DNA of 64,000 nucleotides, taken from Erodium maritimum. Its lineage: Eukaryota > Streptophyta > Magnoliopsida > Geraniales > Geraniaceae. The stretch spans positions 84,924,523-84,988,522 of the forward strand of contig OY997589.1 of assembly GCA_963921825.1 (NCBI GenBank), read 5' to 3'. Below are positions 48,662 through 62,525 of this stretch, in pieces. Made by a program: the position numbers and the translations under genes. The notes below the pieces were generated by a model. It ran no database searches, was not told the DNA's origin, and saw nothing but the letters and a program-made list of their open reading frames with translations. Positions within the stretch are counted from its first letter, which is position 1. Every line of letters starts with the position of its first letter.

Positions 48662-48671
48662 TATATATAAG
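48662..48671 (+). promoter_or_regulatory. TATA box of the AGP gene
   Basis: TATATATAAG lies 45-54 bases upstream of the ATG at 48716, a suitable distance for a short plant leader. Confidence 0.55.
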
Positions 48672-48715
48672 TATCAATCCATGCTATGATAATATTGATC
48701 ACTACCCACAAAAAA

Positions 48716-49875
48716 ATGGATTACATGTTGAGAGCTTTCATCTTGGCCTGTCTTGCCTTTCCTATGGCCGTTCATGGCCAAGGACCAGCAGCTTCACCAT
48801 TGCCTAGTACAAACCCTAACCCACCTGTTGCGGCGGCTCAGCCACCGACGGTTGTCGTGGCCACCCCTCCCGCCACCGCAACCACCCCCGTTCCACCACC
48901 GGCTCCAAAAGTTGCACCCGTTTCACCACCGGCTCCAAAAGCCTCTCCGGTGGCATCACCGACTCCAAAACCCTCTCCGGTGGCATCACCGACGCCGAAA
49001 GCCTCCCCGGTTGCATCACCGGCTCCGAAAGCCGCACCGGCCTTGAGCCCGGTCTCGGCTCCATCTCTGCCGCCAGCACCGGCCACCACCCCTCCGCCGC
49101 CACCAAAACCGGCTCCGACACCTGCTCCGGTGAAGGCAACACCACTCCCAGCTCCGGTGCCGGCGCCGGTCGCCAGTCCACCCGCTCCAACCCCGGTATC
49201 GGTGCCCACACCGGCTCCGGCTCCGGCGAAGCACAAGAAGAAGAAGCATCACAAGCACAAGAAGCATCACGCGCCGGCACCGGCACCGACGGTTCAAAGC
49301 CCTCCGGCACCGCCTGCAAAAGCAGATCCAGAGGACATGGTTCCGGCGCCGTCGCCGAGTCTTGACTTGGTAACACCTCCGATCACTTTAAATCACATTG
49401 GGTAACCGTGGGTCCTAACCCTCTTCTTGAGGTTTGTTTTGGTGATGTTAACTGGGCTTGATCTTTTTTTGTACTTCCCAACTATGAACTTTGTATTTTT
49501 TGCGTAAACTAACAATTTCCGTCTATTTTGACGATTCCGTTAAAAAAATGTTAATGTCATCTGACCAACACGTGTCAAAAACATAACGGAATCCGTTAAA
49601 ATAAACGGAAATTGTTAGTTTTCGTAAAAAAAAGATCAAACGTAGTTGGGAAGTGAAAGAAAAGATCAAGTCCAGTTAAGATCGCTAAAACAAACCTCAA
49701 AGAGGACTAGGACCCACCAATCACATTTCATCAGTAGCTTGTAAATGGGTTTTTTCTTAAATAACGATGTATTTTTTCTGGATCGCAGAATGGAGTAGCT
49801 TCGTATGATCAAGGGAGGCTTGGGAGTTTGGTGAGGATTGGATTGACCATTGCCATTCTTCTGGCTGTTGCATAA
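48716..49875 (+). CDS. Lysine-rich classical arabinogalactan protein, GPI-anchored, 246 aa
   Basis: Exon 1 is 48716-49369 (218 codons) and exon 2 is 49789-49875 (28 codons plus stop). The phase-0 join sits at GACTTG/GTAACA and ATCGCAG/AATGGA. Residues 1-21 are a signal peptide (MLRAFILACLAFPMAVHG, then Q). Repeats of APKASPVASP and PAP type suit hydroxyproline O-glycosylation with arabinogalactan. A Lys/His block (KHKKKKHHKHKKHH, about 171-186) marks the lysine-rich AGP17/18/19-like subclass. Exon 2 gives the GPI signal: NGVASYDQG, then hydrophobic IGLTIAILLAVA. The product should sit on the outer plasma membrane or in the wall. The start at 48716 was chosen over 48686 because the signal peptide follows directly. 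The intron holds a MITE; if it is retained, the protein ends VTPPITLNHIG without a GPI signal. Confidence 0.92.
49400..49718. mobile_element. Mutator-type MITE in the AGP intron
   Basis: A 319-bp foldback with arms of about 150 bp (TGGGTCCTAACCCTCTTC at left against TGGGTCCTAGTCCTCTTT from the right). It has a perfect 9-bp TSD AATCACATT (49391-49399 and 49719-49727). It fills most of the 419-bp intron. Confidence 0.9.
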
Positions 49876-51194: not shown

Positions 51195-52079
51195 GGTAGT
51201 GTCACGCCCCAAATCCGGTTTTGACTGGACTCGAGACGTGAACTAAAATATAATCATAAATAAAATAAGTTAAAGTGAAATAAGCTCCAACAATGGTTCA
51301 AACTCATAAATCCTGATAATAAGAGTCAAATGCTCAAGTACCACAATAAAACGAAGTTTAATACAAAAGAAGGTACGTCACTAAACAACCCAAAAATAAG
51401 GACTCTCGCCAGGCTCCCCCAGCTCTGAGACGTCCTCTAAACCGACTCACGATCAAAACCTGTACAATAGTAGAAAAGAGGGATGAGCTTTCGCTCAGTA
51501 GGAAAAAGTAGTTAAGGGGATGAGCTATCCGCTCACCACCACGGGTAACCGTCCAATTAGGGCATACTAGTAAGCACCATAACTACGAATCAATTAAACA
51601 AGTAATCCAAGATAACGCTTGACCCTCACTCGGGTACAACCCGTAAATCGACCTCGACACTGAACCGAACTCATGCATTTCGTCTCAACTATGCTCTCAG
51701 CACCCGTCACTTAACAATTCTCAATGGACAACGCCCACGGTCATCTCACAACCGACCACACGTGCGAACTCGCACGACCATACACTGAACTCAGGTATAA
51801 CTGTATATCAAATGCACAGAAGATCACATAGCATGCATAAGCAATCACAACAGCCAACACAGATCAACACACAGAATAATATGATTAGCAATCATTGCCA
51901 CCTATGGTATTCCAGAACAATGCGCCGGCCGCTAAAGCCCGGCTCATCACGTCGTCCGAACTCGACATCGGCCTGGACATCTTCCCGGAGCATAGCATCG
52001 GGGTACAACTCATAATATAGCGGACCGCAATCCTTCGTCGGTCGGGTATATCTTCCCGTAGTACGGGGTATAAATCACA

Positions 52080-52480
52080 TAACACATACCATCCTGGGGT
52101 ACGGTATAAACATTGCTATGGAATACCCTCCTCGGCTCTTGATCCCCTGTACCGTAATCGCACATGCAACACAGGTATCGCACCGGAACCAATCCTCGGC
52201 CTGGATATCCTATATCGGAACCCTCCACGGTATAGATATCATACCGGAAGCCTCAGTCTAGATATCTATATCGGAACCATCCATCGATATAGATATCGTA
52301 CCAGAACACACCGCCTCGGAACATATCGTGCCGGAACAGCCTCAGCTACGATATCGCACCGGAACAACATCCTCAAACATATCGCCTCGGAACATATCGT
52401 GCCGGAACAACATCAGCCACGATATCGGACCGGAACAACATCCTCAAACATATCATATCGAACATATCACACCGGCATAC
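52080..52480. repeat. Minisatellite-like array in solo LTR A
   Basis: Imperfect units around ATATCG, ACCGGAAC and CATCCTC recur, for example GCCTCGGAACATATCGTGCC at about 52310 and 52385. Confidence 0.65.
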
Positions 52481-53099
52481 CATACCGAACAGTCTTACCG
52501 AACACAACACATCGGTCTATCAATCACCCGATCATATCACAAAGTCTGACACATATCGTAAACAATAACTCACACCAACATTCACCACGTTCTCATAGCA
52601 TATCATGATCCTTGATTCAACCACGGACATACCACATATCACAACAAACACAACCAACACGCAATCATACGAGCCCAACCAGGGACCCACATGTGAAACT
52701 ACAGCACAACAATTTCCACACTTACGAGCACGACCTAGCCCGCAAGTGGTTCCATCTTTATATGACTACGCTAGTTATTCACATCCTACATACGATTCTA
52801 TATTATATCGATTGTTCATAACCTATATGCATACTAGTAACTTTCCGCAATTAAATCGGTATTTCGCTACTTTTCCCTACCTCAATCGCTATCCAAACGC
52901 AAGCCAACGCGAGTCGCTCAATAGCCTCCTCCGCCGTGCTCGGGAACAACGTCTAAGATCACAAGTAATACGAGAATTAGTAGTAATTCAAGGGCGGTTT
53001 AAAGAGAAAAAAAATCCCAATTTAACCCCCAATAAGCTCGGTTGTAGAAAACCTTTCTAATTTCCCGAAAACGACTAAAATGGGCCCAAAAGGCCCAAT

Positions 53100-53240
53100 T
53101 CTGATCCATCGCGGTTCGGGTCACGGAGCCTTGACGGACTCCGTGACGGATCGGGTCAAGGAACTGTGATGCTCACCGTCACGGAGCCGTGACGCACTCT
53201 GTCACGGTCCCCGTCACGGATCCGTGACGGGTCTGACAGT
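53100..53240. repeat. CACGG/CCGTG palindrome cluster in solo LTR A
   Basis: About ten CACGG or CCGTGA words within 140 bp, including GTCACGGAGCCGTGACG and GTCACGGATCCGTGACGG. The cluster lies beside the point where GC-rich passes to AT-rich DNA. Confidence 0.85.
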
Positions 53241-54147
53241 TCCGTCCTTCTTCTTCCTCCAGCTTCTTCTCCACGAAATCAAACCCCCAAAACTCCATTT
53301 TTATCAACCAAAAACCTCCAAATCAGTCCCATAAACCTCAATACTTCAACACCCATGTTGGGTTTCATCAAAACAACAAAAACCTAATTGATTTCTATTA
53401 AAATCTCCCACTTTTCTCCATAAATCAATCATCTAAACAACAAACAACCTACATCCATGGAAACCCAACCTAGTTCAAGGTTTTACTATCAAACCCATAA
53501 CTTAAACTTCATCAAAGTGAGTTTTGATTGAAGGTTTACCTTAGGAATTAGAGAGAGGAAGAGGAATATGAAGTTTTTGAGGAGATTTGAGATGAAAATC
53601 AAGCCAAGGTCTCCCTTTTCTCTCCTTTCTTCTTCTTCTTAAAGCTTCAATGGTGTTTTTCTCTCTCTCTCTCTCATCTCTTGGAATTTTCGGCCAACAT
53701 TAGCAAAATAGGCTGAATTGTGCTCCAAACTAGCCTTTAACCTAGGGTAGAAAAGACCACCTTGTCCCCTAGCTCCCTTCCTTCTCTTTGGGCCCATATG
53801 AGGGCAAATGAGTCTTTCTAGACCCATTACTTCTCCTCCAAGCCACTATGGACAAGTGTCCATGTGGGGTCCACCTTTACCCTTAATAATTTCCAGCACA
53901 TTTAAATTAAGTCGACTTAGTCTCTAATTTGACCCCGTTTGACCCGCGGTTGACTTTTTCACAAAAGTAGTCATTAGAAAGGAAACGACCCAACTAAGCT
54001 AACCGTAATGACGACTAAGCTTTTTGGGTCCTAGAAAGGTCCTGAATGACTCCCGGAGTCATCGGTTGACTTTTCTGGCGGAAAGTCAACTTTCCCCAAA
54101 TTTCACCAGTTCGACCGGTGTCGACCGGGGGCGGTTCTTACAGATAG

Positions 54148-54735: not shown

Positions 54736-54799
54736 TATTTTTCATTTTAAAATGTTGAATAGTATAATGTTTGTAACCAATACTTAAAGATAATTTTTA

Positions 54800-55272
54800 G
54801 GGAAATATCATATTGGTACCCTTAACTATACGTTTTTAACACATTGGTACGCTTAACTAATTTAATCACTAAAAAGGTACCTTAAGTTTCCAATCAGTAA
54901 CACGTTAGTGTTTTCCGTCCATTTTTGGACGGAAAATGGTCATGTGCAATGCACATGACCTTAAACTTTCAAAAAAATGACAAAAATACCCCTCTTAGTC
55001 CAAACCCTAATTATTCTTTTACCTTATTTCTCCTACGCAACCTTCATCTCCCCCTTTTTATTTCATACATACGCCTCCTTCATTCTGTTTCTCCTTCATT
55101 TTATTTGAAAGTTTAAGGTCATGTGCATTGCACATGACCATTTTCCGTCCAAAAATGGACGGAAAACACTAGTGTTACTGGAAACTTAAGGTACCTTTTT
55201 AGTGATTAAATTAGTTAAGGGTACCAATGTGTTAAAAACGTATAGTTAAGGATACGAATATGATATTTTCTT
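54800..55272. mobile_element. 473-bp inverted-repeat MITE with 9-bp TSD
   Basis: Arms of about 180 bp contain GGTCATGTGCAATGCACATG and GTCCATTTTTGGAC and are almost perfect inverted copies around a spacer of about 120 bp. The perfect 9-bp flank TAATTTTTA occurs at 54791-54799 and 55273-55281. The size and TSD fit a Mutator-type MITE. It ends about 220 bp before the start codon of the peptide gene. Confidence 0.85.
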
Positions 55273-55608
55273 TAATTTTTAATATTTACCCCATTATAGA
55301 TTATAATCTCTAGTGTACCAAGTCTCCTATTGCCAAACCCATTATGTTGGGCTTAAACGTGTGATCCACGTTGCAATCAAATGCAAAACGAAAGTGGGAG
55401 AAGAATTGGAGTCAGTCCGTCAACCAACAAGACCAACAAGTGTTATTATAACTAGAGAGAACTAACAGTCCCAATTCTTTAGCACTCAACACATGACGAA
55501 ACCTAAGACATTGCTAATCATCGTAGTCCTAATAACACTCCTTCCCATGTCCACAACGGCCCGGAGATTATCAGGTGAGTGAGTTTGAACACGATTGTTC
55601 CACTCTTA

Positions 55609-55914
55609 GAGCAGCTCCAACGGGTCGTGTCTACCCGTCGTGTCTGGCGTAGGCACGGCCCTGACACGACGCGTAGACACGGCTGGTCGTGTCTACCCGT
55701 CGTCTATGCAGTGTCGTGCTACTGGTCGTTGCTGAATCTAGCAACAACGCCATATAGTGTCTACCAACCATTTTGTTCCAAAAATGCTTCCTACCATGGC
55801 TTTAGACACTGCACCATTGGAGGAGTAGTGTCTGGAAGCAGTGTCAGGAAGCCAAATAGCACTCCTTGACACTGCTCCTTGACACTGCACAATGTCTAAC
55901 CATTGCAGATGCTC
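55609..55914. mobile_element. Tourist/PIF-Harbinger-type MITE in the peptide gene intron
   Basis: A 306-bp element with ends GAGCAGCTCCAACGG and, reverse-complemented from the right, GAGCATCTGCAATGG. It is flanked by the 3-bp TSD TTA (55606-55608 and 55915-55917). The interior repeats the words GTCGTGTCTACCCGTCG and GACACTGC. Confidence 0.85.
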
Positions 55915-56197
55915 TTATCGATAGTTTTTTTTGGAGAAACATTCATAATATATCATCAAAAGATCTTTTTAACACAAATGTATCGTCGGATGTATAAATA
56001 CATTTCTGGAAAGAAAATGAGGACAACACGTTTTACTAGAAAAAAGATCGTCGGATGACATATTATAAAAGTTTTGTATTGTCTATATATGAGCAATTTG
56101 ATGATTGCCCTAAAATAACTCGATTGATTCGTTTCGTTCATGTGCAATAGCTCATGAAAATGGTAGCGGAAACGGTGGATCAAAAATAAGAGCCAAG

Positions 56198-56305
56198 GGA
56201 AGTGACTCAAAAACTGATCAATCAGCGATGGGTGGAAGTTGCACAAAATTGGATCAATCAACGATGGGTGAAAGTCACTCGAAAACGGATCAATCAGTGA
56301 TGAGT
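56198..56305 (+). repeat. Three 36-bp coding tandem repeats in the peptide gene
   Basis: Units start at 56198, 56234 and 56270, with a partial fourth at 56306. Each encodes 12 residues with DQS at its centre. Confidence 0.9.
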
Positions 56306-56358
56306 CGAAGTCACTCAAAACCCGGTTCCGTGAATCATCGTTACAAGGGCGATCCTTG

Positions 56359-58992
56359 TGTAAGACCCGCTCCCGGTCGAACCGACGACTTTTCAAGCAG
56401 TTTGACTTGCTACCGGAAAGTCAACCGATGACTCAAGAAGTCACTCGGGACTTTTCCGGAACCCAAACGACTTAGCCATCATCACGGTTGGCTTAAGGGG
56501 AGAAATTCCTTTCGTTTGAGTATAATGTTGGAGAAAGTCAATTTTGGTCAAAACGAGACTTTTTATCGACGAAAAGCATTATTTTATTGTGCTGGAAATT
56601 ATTTTGGAAAAGTAAATAAACTATTTGGACACTTGTCCCTTTTTGGTTGAAAGAGAGAAAAGGGAGTAGTCTTAGACCCTTTTACCCTCCCAAAAGCTTG
56701 TACAAGGGATTCTAGCTCAAGGGCTTTTAGTCATTTGACACATCTAGGTATTATATGAGTTTGGAAAAGCAAAACCAACCCATTTTTACTTGGTGTAGCC
56801 GAAATTTGGAGTAGGAGCAAGAGAGAAGAGCTCCCATGGAGCTTTGAAGGAAAATCAAGGAAGAAGAGGCCACTTGAAGTCTTCCTTTAGCCATCCCTCC
56901 TCAAAATCACTACCATCTTCTCCATCTCACTCTTCTAGAGGTAATGGAACTCTCTAATCCTCATTTCCCTTCATCTCTTTTCATGGGTTTTGGGTGAAAT
57001 TGCTAGATGTTGTTGGGTTTGAGTAGAAATGATGGGAGATGTTGTGGATAAGAAGCTTTGTTGTGTTTTGTGAGAAATCCTTGGTTTGGTGGAGCTTTTA
57101 AGTTGGTTTTGATTTGTTGAATCATTAGAAACTTTCTTATTTGTTGATTCCTACCATGGGTAGAGGAGTATTGAAGGATTTGGACTGTGTTGGTAGTTGG
57201 AAGGGGTAAAATTTGGGGTTTGAAGGTGGCTTTTCGGAGAAAAGGAGCTGGAGGTTGGAGAAGGGCGAAACTGCCCTGGTGCGCCACAGATACGTGACGG
57301 ATCCCGTGACGGGCGACGCCACGGCTCCGTGAGGGAGTCCGTGACGGCACTCGTCACGGCTCCGTGACGGTAACCGTGAGGGTTGACGTCACGGATCCGT
57401 GACCAGGTCCGTGGCCGAGCAGGGTGAGGGTTTCCTTGAGGGTTTTTCACCTTGGTTGATCTTGGTTTTGAGCCGAACTTTGGAGGGGCTTTGGGGGTCT
57501 TACTTGCTGATTAAGTGGAGTCTAATTAACGTTTCTTTGTTTCCAAGACTTTGGGGATCGAGCTAGAGGAGCAAGGATCACACCGGGACCCGAGTGAAGA
57601 ACGGAGTGGTGACCACCGGGCTTATCATCAGAGGGTGGAGAGGAAGACCTCGAGGTAGGGAAAGTCTTAACCTCTCGTTTAAATGCTTAGTATGCATGTT
57701 AGGCTAATAAAATCGGAAAGGTCCTAGAAATGCCTATAGGATGCGAATAACTAGAATATTTGTCTTTCAATTACTAATAACCGGAAGTGTCTAGTGGTGA
57801 ATGAATAGGATGCCAATCACTAGTGTAACTCGCTTTCAATACTTGAGAATTGTTTGTCTGGTAGAGTGGCCTTGGCAAAGCCCTCAGATTAGTTGCGTGT
57901 TAGGATCACATGCTTGATTGTTTGGTTGCTTAGTGGATAGGCTAAAGAGTCTAATGGAACTAGTTGAACTGCATATTTGAATGCTCGTTTGAAGGTTTTC
58001 ATGTTTGGTTGATTGAACTCGTATTGGACTGTTGACTGTATTTGGATGATTGCTTGTTTTCCTTAAATGATTGCTTGGAGCATCGAGTATGACTGGTTGT
58101 ACCGAGCGGTGCAATCAGGTGATCGATGCCCCGATGGGTCGAGACTGGTAAGTGAACGGTAAGTTGTGATTGTGTAATTCGTGTGCTGTGTGATGCGGTG
58201 AAACGGTGATGTGTGAGCTATGTGTGATAGTGAATTGGTGGTTGTTGGGATTGGATTGCTTCGTGTTTCGATTGAGTGTGTTACTCAGGTGTCGTCTGAT
58301 TATTGTTGATACGGTATGGTACCTACACCGTTGAGGAGTCCGGTGTAGGATGATATATTGGGTACTTGTTGAATTGCCCAAGTGTATGCTTCCTATGAGA
58401 GTAATACCTTGGTTCCCGAGGACATAAAATCCTTTGGAGACGTTTCTGAGAATCCCGATGATAAGCGCCCCGAGGGGTTGTTTCCGGTCGCCTCAATGTT
58501 ATGCGTCTCCTCTGGATTTGAGGGAAATTCCGAGAGGACACATCATATGTTGATCGGAGGGTGGTGACCTTATGTGCCACGGCATTGGCTGGATTACTTT
58601 TTCTCGTGGTTGTTAAGAACTATCTTATTGTCTTTGCTGTTGACTTTATTGAGTTTAAGGTCCACCTTGTTATGTGTTTTCCCTACTGAGCGCAAGCTCA
58701 CCCCTGTGAGTTTATTGTTGTGTTTACAGGCTTGATTGAGGAGTAGAGGCTCGGGAGCTTCTCGGTGTGGGTGTCTATAGAGACTTCGCTTTTATTTTAT
58801 TTTCGTTTGGAACAGATTTTGTGGAGGATTATTATTACACCCCTGGAGGGTTATTTATGTTTTAAACCAAATTTTGTGGATTTGAGTTCTTATTGGAGTT
58901 TTTCAGGAACTTATTGTTGAGTTATTGTCTTTTAATCACTTATTCCTAGTCACGCCTTGAGTCCGGGCAAGAACCGGATTTGGGGCGTGACA
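56359..58992 (+). mobile_element. Solo LTR B inside an exon, perfect 5-bp TSD
   Basis: Starts TGTAAGACCCGCTCCCGGTC and ends CCGGATTTGGGGCGTGACA (2634 bp). CCTTG lies directly on both sides (56354-56358 and 58993-58997). No internal domain is present, so it is a solo LTR left by recombination. It shares start, end, the CACGG cluster and CTACTGAGCGCAAGCTCA (58684) with copies A and C. Frames such as 57350-57003 are chance. Confidence 0.9.
57285..57420. repeat. CACGG/CCGTG palindrome cluster in solo LTR B
   Basis: About ten CCGTGA or CACGG words, including GTCACGGCTCCGTGACGG and GTCACGGATCCGTGAC. The counterpart in LTR A is at 53100-53240. Confidence 0.85.
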
Positions 58993-59022
58993 CCTTGTCA
59001 GGCCGCATTCAAGTGTAGGTAA

Positions 59023-59282
59023 GAAATGTCAACTTTCGGTGTATGTTCAAATTCGATTTAACCTAAAAAAACATGCGTCATTATCTTTTGTATATTGACT
59101 TTGAACGTTTTGTGGAAGGTAATAAAATCAAAATCAATATAATTGATATGATTTGATTAGGGTGGTCAACTACATTGATATATAATCTTTATTTCTTTCT
59201 CATAGTCTTGTAATCTCCTATATATAGGAGTATCAAATTTCATTATAATATCAAGTGAAGCATTTTCAGCTTTATAATTTTA
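59023..59282. other. 3' flank of the peptide gene
   Basis: AT-rich. A weak TATATAGGAGTATC near 59221. No exon could be assigned. Confidence 0.35.
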
Positions 59283-59289
59283 CACGTTT

Positions 59290-61116: not shown

Positions 61117-62525
61117 TGTATAACCCGCTTTGGTTGAAAGGGTACTTTTTTCGCAAGTTGAAACTTCGGGGTGGAAAATTGCAATGTGTGAATTGTAAAA
61201 AGAAAATAAAAAAAGGGAGAAAGGGATTTTGGGCCGGACTGGGCCGGTCAGAGGACCAGGCCCAGCACAACAACTCGGGCCAAGCCCGCACGAGAAACGC
61301 ACTCGGGCCAGGCCCAAGCCGCTTCAAAACCAGACCTAAAGCCTAAGGAGCCTACTGTTCATCGTCTTCAACGCTCGCCGCTTTAAAACTAGGGTTGGTA
61401 TACCGAGACCGATCTTGGATTTGTGCTGCGTGTTATATTCTCCTTGTGTGTTCTAAGAAAAGACGTAGCTGGAGTGATACTTACACCGAGGGATAGTTCC
61501 GGTGTAGTGTATCAAGGCCAAGGATGGCGTGTTTGGTATCCTGAGTCTCTGTGACGGGAGGACTTACGACCGAGGTATGTGCCGGTCCGTTGTACGTGAG
61601 GCCCTGAGTCTACGTGACAGGAAGACGTCCGACTGAGGGATTTCCGGTCTGGGATGTTACCCCGAGTCTACGTGACGGGAAGATGTCGGGACCGAGGCTT
61701 CGTGATCCGGTATGATATAATTGGAACGGGCTGTGATAGCCGGAGACATTGGAATTGGTTATACTACGTTTAGGGTGGGTTTACTTTGTGTGATGTGCGT
61801 GTCGTTTGGCTTTGTGCGTTGTCTGTTGTGTGTGCTACGCGTACTGTTTGGCTTTGTGCGTCGTCTGCTGTGTGTGCCGTGCATGCTGTCTGGCTGCGTA
61901 CATTGAGTTAAGTGTGACGTGAGAGTGTTTGGTGACTTGAGGAGCTGCTATACCTGTTCTTGTGTTGTCGTGCGAGTTCGCACGTGTGATCGGTTGTGAG
62001 ATAGCCGTGGGCGTTGTTCGTTGAGAATGGTTAGGTGATGATGGTCAAGAGCTAGTTGTGAAAAGTGATGGTTTCGGTTCTTTGCGAGTTGTTTTACGGG
62101 TTGTGCCTGAGTGAAAGTCACGCGTTGTCTTGTAGTATTTGTTTATTTTGACTTTTAATAGTTGTGCTTTACTAGTATGCCCTAATTAGCGGTTACCCGT
62201 GGTGATGAACTATGGTTCAGACCCTTAACTACTTTTTCTACTGAGCGTAAGCTCACCCCTTACTTTGTTGTGTTTCAGGTGTTGAGCGGGACTTGTACTA
62301 GCAGGATTCTTGGAGCTAGGGAGCTGACGGGGATTCGGGCTAGTGTCTATAGATGTATAGTCTTATTACTGTTTTGACTTGTTTTTATTATCGAGTTGTT
62401 GAATCGTTGAATCTTCGAAACTTTAAATTGCTTTTGAGACTCGTTTATTTATCCTATTTACTTTATTATTATTTTATCTTAAGTCGCGTCTCGAATTCGG
62501 TCAAAACCGGATTTGGGGCGTGACA
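61117..62525 (+). mobile_element. Solo LTR C, shorter relative, perfect 5-bp TSD
   Basis: Starts TGTATAACCCGCTTTGG and ends AACCGGATTTGGGGCGTGACA's core GGGGCGTGACA (1409 bp). ACAAA lies on both sides (61112-61116 and 62526-62530). It shares CTACTGAGCGTAAGCTCACC (62239) with B and the GTTCGCACGTGTGATCGG region (61977) with A. No internal domain is present. Confidence 0.88.
61541..61720. repeat. About 60-bp tandem repeat (3 units) in solo LTR C
   Basis: Units begin at CTGAGTCTCTGTGACGGGAG (61541), CTGAGTCTACGTGACAGGAA (61604) and CCGAGTCTACGTGACGGGAA (about 61662). Confidence 0.8.

What the first reader, a model, noticed from the sequence alone, without database searches (positions are those of the whole stretch)
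56351..59022. Solo LTR inserted inside a Cys codon of a secreted-peptide gene
Seen: CCTTG duplicated at both LTR ends, and the exon frame continues across the empty site (GDPC then QAAFKCR). Signal peptide and intron phase agree. The present allele would make a peptide with an LTR-encoded tail (stop at 56431) or none. The insertion could be polymorphic between accessions, giving a natural loss-of-function or tail-swap allele.
Basis: partly seen in the sequence, partly recalled or inferred. Interest (0 to 1): 0.75.

Follow-up and report, generated by a model that had tools for sequence, protein, structure and literature searches.

The report
Solo LTR splitting a plant peptide gene
In a plant chromosome, one leftover end of a common jumping element sits inside what looks like a small secreted-peptide gene and changes the peptide's tail; the kind of event is well known, but this copy carries splice-like signals at its edges that might let the plant cut it back out of the message.

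Summary
A 2634-bp LTR (56359-58992, TG...CA) lies between exact 5-bp copies of CCTTG. It belongs to a high-copy Ty3/gypsy family of the same genome; of 23 relatives read, 14 are exact-TSD solo LTRs. It falls after base 2 of a Cys codon in exon 2 of a predicted small secreted-peptide gene. The present frame gives 120 aa with a 23-residue LTR-coded tail, stop at 56429-56431. The host gene is a prediction without a Pfam, PDB or paralogue match for the parts searched, though its anatomy is rare by chance (0 of 1500 shuffles). Orthologues, expression and polymorphism could not be tested. The supposed native stop overlaps a donor-like TAG|GTAAGA.

New here: LTR bases 2-6 are GTAAG (23 of 23 relatives), and a CAG ends 4 bases after the second TSD, so splicing out 56360-59001 would keep the frame, short of one Gln. 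Exonic LTR elements spliced out are published in Arabidopsis. Loss or tail swap is most likely, splicing-out possible. An ordinary kind of event; modest interest.

The parts
55493..55574 (+). predicted exon 1, signal-peptide-like, ending CAG|GTGAGT (phase 1)
   Evidence: donor 9 of 9 by a simple consensus (A or C at -3, A or G at +3); best 10-aa hydropathy 3.64
55575..56150 (+). predicted intron, GT...TAG
55606..55917 (+). MITE in the intron, TTA at both ends, inverted ends GAGCAGCTCCAA / TTGCAGATGCTC (PIF/Harbinger-like; class recalled)
   Evidence: one search lists 39 other copies, a lower bound
56151..56358 (+). left part of predicted exon 2, with in-frame 36-nt repeats
56354..56358 (+). 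TSD copy 1, CCTTG
56359..58992 (+). solo LTR of a Ty3/gypsy family, sense to the gene
56359..56431 (+). LTR part of the present frame: completes the Cys codon, then 23 residues and stop TGA 56429-56431
56360..56364 (+). GTAAG at LTR bases 2-6, possible splice donor (5 of 9 consensus matches)
   Evidence: present in 23 of 23 relatives read
58993..58997 (+). TSD copy 2, CCTTG
58999..59001 (+). CAG, possible splice acceptor that keeps the frame in step
58998..59022 (+). right part of predicted exon 2 (QAAFKCR and TAA)
59017..59024 (+). AG|GTAAGA, donor-like site overlapping the supposed stop
   Evidence: 7 of 9 matches
59111..59284 (+). second solo LTR, 174 bp, TRIM-like (class recalled), TSD CGTTT both sides

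Best explanation
A Ty3/gypsy retrotransposon inserted, in sense orientation, inside a Cys codon of exon 2 of a small secreted-peptide gene, and LTR-LTR recombination then left a solo LTR (structure shown, events inferred). Transcripts from the gene's promoter most likely run into the LTR, so the cell makes either a peptide whose last residues are replaced by 23 LTR-coded ones or, after decay or silencing, nothing. The native C-terminus is lost from the ordinary product. That the gene was functional before is inferred.
For: Exact TSD and family-defined ends. Of 23 relatives read, 14 have exact equal 5-bp flanks, 3 differ by one base, and 6 are joined to an internal region by a PBS-like or PPT-like sequence (PBS and PPT named by eye). 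gag, RT-RNase H and integrase pieces lie between two family LTRs. Gene anatomy rare by chance. Frame and stop read directly. The window copy's end branch is 0.019 changes per site in a tree of 24 copies, an upper bound on change since insertion: about 1.5 to 2.7 million years at 1.3e-8 to 7e-9 per site per year (rates recalled). AATAAA occurs in the LTR at 56615 and 57706, possible poly(A) signals.
Against: No homologue of the peptide parts searched. No transcript data. Among the three in-frame 36-nt units, differences fall at codon positions 1, 2 and 3 in the numbers 13, 8 and 4, and 15 of 17 codon differences change the residue: no sign of purifying selection there. The antisense strand is open over the same stretch. 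The native end of the gene is uncertain (donor-like site at 59019).
Confidence: 0.6

Rival explanations
1. The LTR is spliced out as a new intron, donor T|GTAAGA at LTR base 2 and acceptor CAG at 59001 (or AAG at 59013), giving a nearly native peptide; with the first acceptor it is short of one Gln.
For: Sites present and frame in step; GTAAG in 23 of 23 relatives read. Published cases: Evelknievel in CMT1 exon 13, splice sites at the LTR edge and TSD (PMC6238269, abstract and passages); an exonic ONSEN insertion (PMC12112155, abstract and passages).
Against: The donor matches only 5 of 9 consensus positions. The 20 bases before the acceptor's AG hold 11 pyrimidines and a GGGG run. Of 4 AGs just after the LTR, 2 are in step, so an in-step AG is not surprising. 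Stronger donor-like sites lie inside the LTR at 58148 and 58159. In PMC12112155, exonic insertions most often gave chimeric transcripts rather than clean removal (passage).
Confidence: 0.12
2. The gene was already a pseudogene or was never a gene; the LTR landed in ordinary intergenic DNA.
For: No homologue of the parts searched; dense mobile-element surroundings; repeat units without sign of purifying selection; open antisense frame.
Against: Signal-peptide-like start, 9-of-9 donor, phase and frame across the empty site together are rare (0 of 1500 shuffles at donor score 8 or more, 2 of 1500 at 7 or more; only one in the window at that hydropathy).
Confidence: 0.28

Closest known systems
Evelknievel retroelement in exon 13 of Arabidopsis CMT1 (PMC6238269; abstract and passages seen)
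   Same: LTR element in a coding exon; splice sites at the LTR edge and in the TSD restore the frame in some transcripts
   Different: Whole element, not a solo LTR; splicing was shown there by RT-PCR and sequencing, here only sites are seen
ONSEN insertions in Arabidopsis genes (PMC12112155; abstract and passages seen)
   Same: LTR elements in genes cause early termination and chimeric transcripts, or are spliced out
   Different: New experimental insertions of full-length elements of another family
Solo LTR of TORE1 upstream of torenia F3H (PMC4234012; passages seen)
   Same: Solo LTR at a plant gene; 5-bp TSD of the element
   Different: In the 5'-upstream region, not in an exon
CTNIP signalling peptides (PMC9191895; abstract start in a listing and passages seen)
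   Same: Small secreted precursor with two Cys near the C-terminus
   Different: CTNIP Cys are 9-11 residues apart; here 5 residues lie between the last two Cys across the empty site, 16 in the present frame

Membership tests
Solo LTR of a Ty3/gypsy element | one LTR, TG...CA, between equal 5-bp TSDs | tested here: met
Solo LTR of a Ty3/gypsy element | same LTR flanks internal regions with PBS and PPT elsewhere | tested here: met
   6 of 23 relatives read; PBS and PPT named by eye
Solo LTR of a Ty3/gypsy element | RT-RNase H before integrase in the internal region (criterion recalled) | tested here: met
   L057, which lies between family LTRs L030 and L029
Tekay/Del chromovirus lineage (recalled) | chromodomain after integrase | tested here: inconclusive
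   no chromo family at E <= 0.01, but only 7 of the 28 frames listed were given
CTNIP peptides | two Cys spaced 9-11 residues | tested here: not met
   criterion; frames
RALF peptides | RALF profile match and four Cys (recalled) | tested here: inconclusive
   no Pfam family, but only the part up to the split Cys was scanned
Intronised exonic LTR | transcripts joined across the insert | not testable with these tools
   no RNA data; sites only

The most novel reading that the evidence does not exclude
The LTR family carries GTAAG at its second base, so a sense insertion in an exon brings a ready splice donor; here a CAG just past the second TSD completes an in-frame intron, so a solo LTR could have become a new intron at the cost of one amino acid, with the LTR-tailed peptide as a second product of the same allele.
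Probability: 0.12. Interest if true: 0.55.

Novelty: new member of a known kind. Interest (0 to 1): 0.35.

Why it matters
LTR insertions into genes are common and usually harmful. If this one is spliced out, it is a natural example of a new intron born from a solo LTR in one step. If not, it is a natural loss or tail swap of a secreted peptide, usable to test what that peptide's C-terminus does.

Tried and rejected
Paralogues or an empty-site copy in the same genome. DNA of the intron's second part plus left exon found itself and one short match that lies in the intron part. The left-exon protein found itself and two matches at E 0.93 and 1.25 with stops inside, rejected. The 25-residue piece over the empty site found only the window's own locus. 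The right flank's other matches lie in the small LTR or reach a few bases past it. Exon 1, intron and left exon (query 55490-56357): apart from the locus itself, matches lie in the MITE or reach slightly past it. These searches score only the best candidates and skip very common words, so a diverged paralogue is not excluded. Pfam, part up to the split Cys: none. PDB, exon 2 part only: none. A closer family copy: a 601-base LTR piece gave at best 96%.

Plant species: not identified. Total 763 Mb, nine contigs of 62 to 159 Mb. Two literature searches (listings) and passages of one Caprifoliaceae paper (PMC11109519; the 763 there is part of a reference) did not settle it.

Literature on LTR elements in exons and their splicing: only; one search returned none, one search listed the two precedents. 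I make no claim that the splice reading is absent from print. Searches used the window copy and 23 relatives, 19 and 4; one search scored 40 of 8408 candidates, so closer copies may exist. The 12 loci were not added to the tree.

Full report
What was checked. The LTR runs 56359-58992 (2634 bp, TG...CA) between exact CCTTG copies at 56354-56358 and 58993-58997. The window is part of a 763-Mb assembly with nine large contigs; that it is a plant is inferred. The LTR search listed 65 matches after scoring 40 of 8408 candidates. I read the ends of 23 relatives, 19 loci and 4 fetched: 14 have exact equal 5-bp flanks, 3 have flanks that differ by one base (L024, L026, L034), and 6 are joined to an internal region by a PBS-like or PPT-like sequence, named by eye. 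Between two family LTRs on C3, Pfam finds gag and zinc knuckle in L056, then RT and RNase H, then integrase in L057, the Ty3/gypsy order (criterion recalled). So this is a solo LTR of a Ty3/gypsy family.

The host gene. Exon 1 (55493-55574) codes for a signal-peptide-like stretch and ends CAG|GTGAGT; exon 2 begins at 56151 in matching phase. The left part of exon 2 holds 36-nt repeats. Joining the flanks in a script shows a 104-residue frame with its stop at 59020-59022. Dinucleotide shuffles of the joined stretch gave such a model 0 of 1500 times at donor score 8 or more and 2 of 1500 at 7 or more; exon 2 openness alone occurs in 101 of 5000. Over both strands of the window as it stands, the exon 1 donor is the only one at the observed hydropathy and one of two at the looser cut. 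The cut-offs were my own and were chosen after seeing the locus. Against a real gene: no paralogue, no Pfam family (part up to the split Cys only), no PDB match (exon 2 part only); an antisense frame of 154 codons covers 55956-56420; and the three repeat units differ 13, 8 and 4 times at codon positions 1, 2 and 3, with 15 of 17 codon differences changing the residue.

The native end. The supposed stop TAA (59020-59022) lies within TAG|GTAAGA, which matches 7 of 9 donor positions; 123 of 3571 GTs on the window's plus strand score 7 or more. The gene may have had a further exon. A TRIM-like solo LTR (59111-59284, TSD CGTTT) follows; several of its relatives show TGGTATCAGAGC, PBS-like, or a purine tract next to them.

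What the present allele makes. The LTR's first T completes the Cys codon; 23 LTR-coded residues follow, then TGA at 56429-56431, 120 residues in all, with Cys at 58, 97 and 114. AATAAA lies at 56615 and 57706. Early transcript ends inside inserted ONSEN copies, LTR R regions among them, are published (PMC12112155, passages).

Splicing-out. GTAAG occupies LTR bases 2-6 in 23 of 23 relatives. Taking 56360-59001 as an intron leaves the frame in step with one Gln fewer; AAG at 59013 is also in step, two other AGs are not. The donor is weak outside GTAAG (5 of 9) and the acceptor has a poor pyrimidine tract. Precedents: Evelknievel in CMT1, where three splice variants removed the element and one, 25% of events, gave the correct frame (PMC6238269, abstract and passages), and an exonic ONSEN insertion. 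I give this 0.12.

Age. The nearest relative is L049, K2P 0.044; 21 of 2520 sites are private to the window copy; its end branch is 0.019. The end branch is an upper bound on change since insertion because closer copies may be unsampled; about 1.5 to 2.7 million years at recalled rates. This fits either a fixed or a polymorphic insertion. Only one genome was available, and no second copy of either flank was found in it.

Verdict. Confirmed structure, known kind of event, host gene likely but unproven, outcome for the peptide untested. The splice-site reading is the part worth a quick RNA check.

Noticed in passing
51200-54142: Another LTR, opposite orientation, with patchy similarity to this LTR; flanks GGTAG/GATAG, one mismatch, likely solo.
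   Followed up: partly
61117-62525: Likely solo LTR of 1409 bp, TSD ACAAA on both sides; its end resembles that of this LTR.
   Followed up: partly
54796-55275: Long inverted repeats just upstream of exon 1, MITE-like by eye.
   Followed up: no
48671-49402: Pro/Ala-rich open frame, arabinogalactan-protein-like by eye; no Pfam match at E <= 0.01.
   Followed up: partly
58148 and 58159: Two donor-like GTAAGT sites 11 bases apart inside the LTR, 8 of 9 matches each.
   Followed up: no
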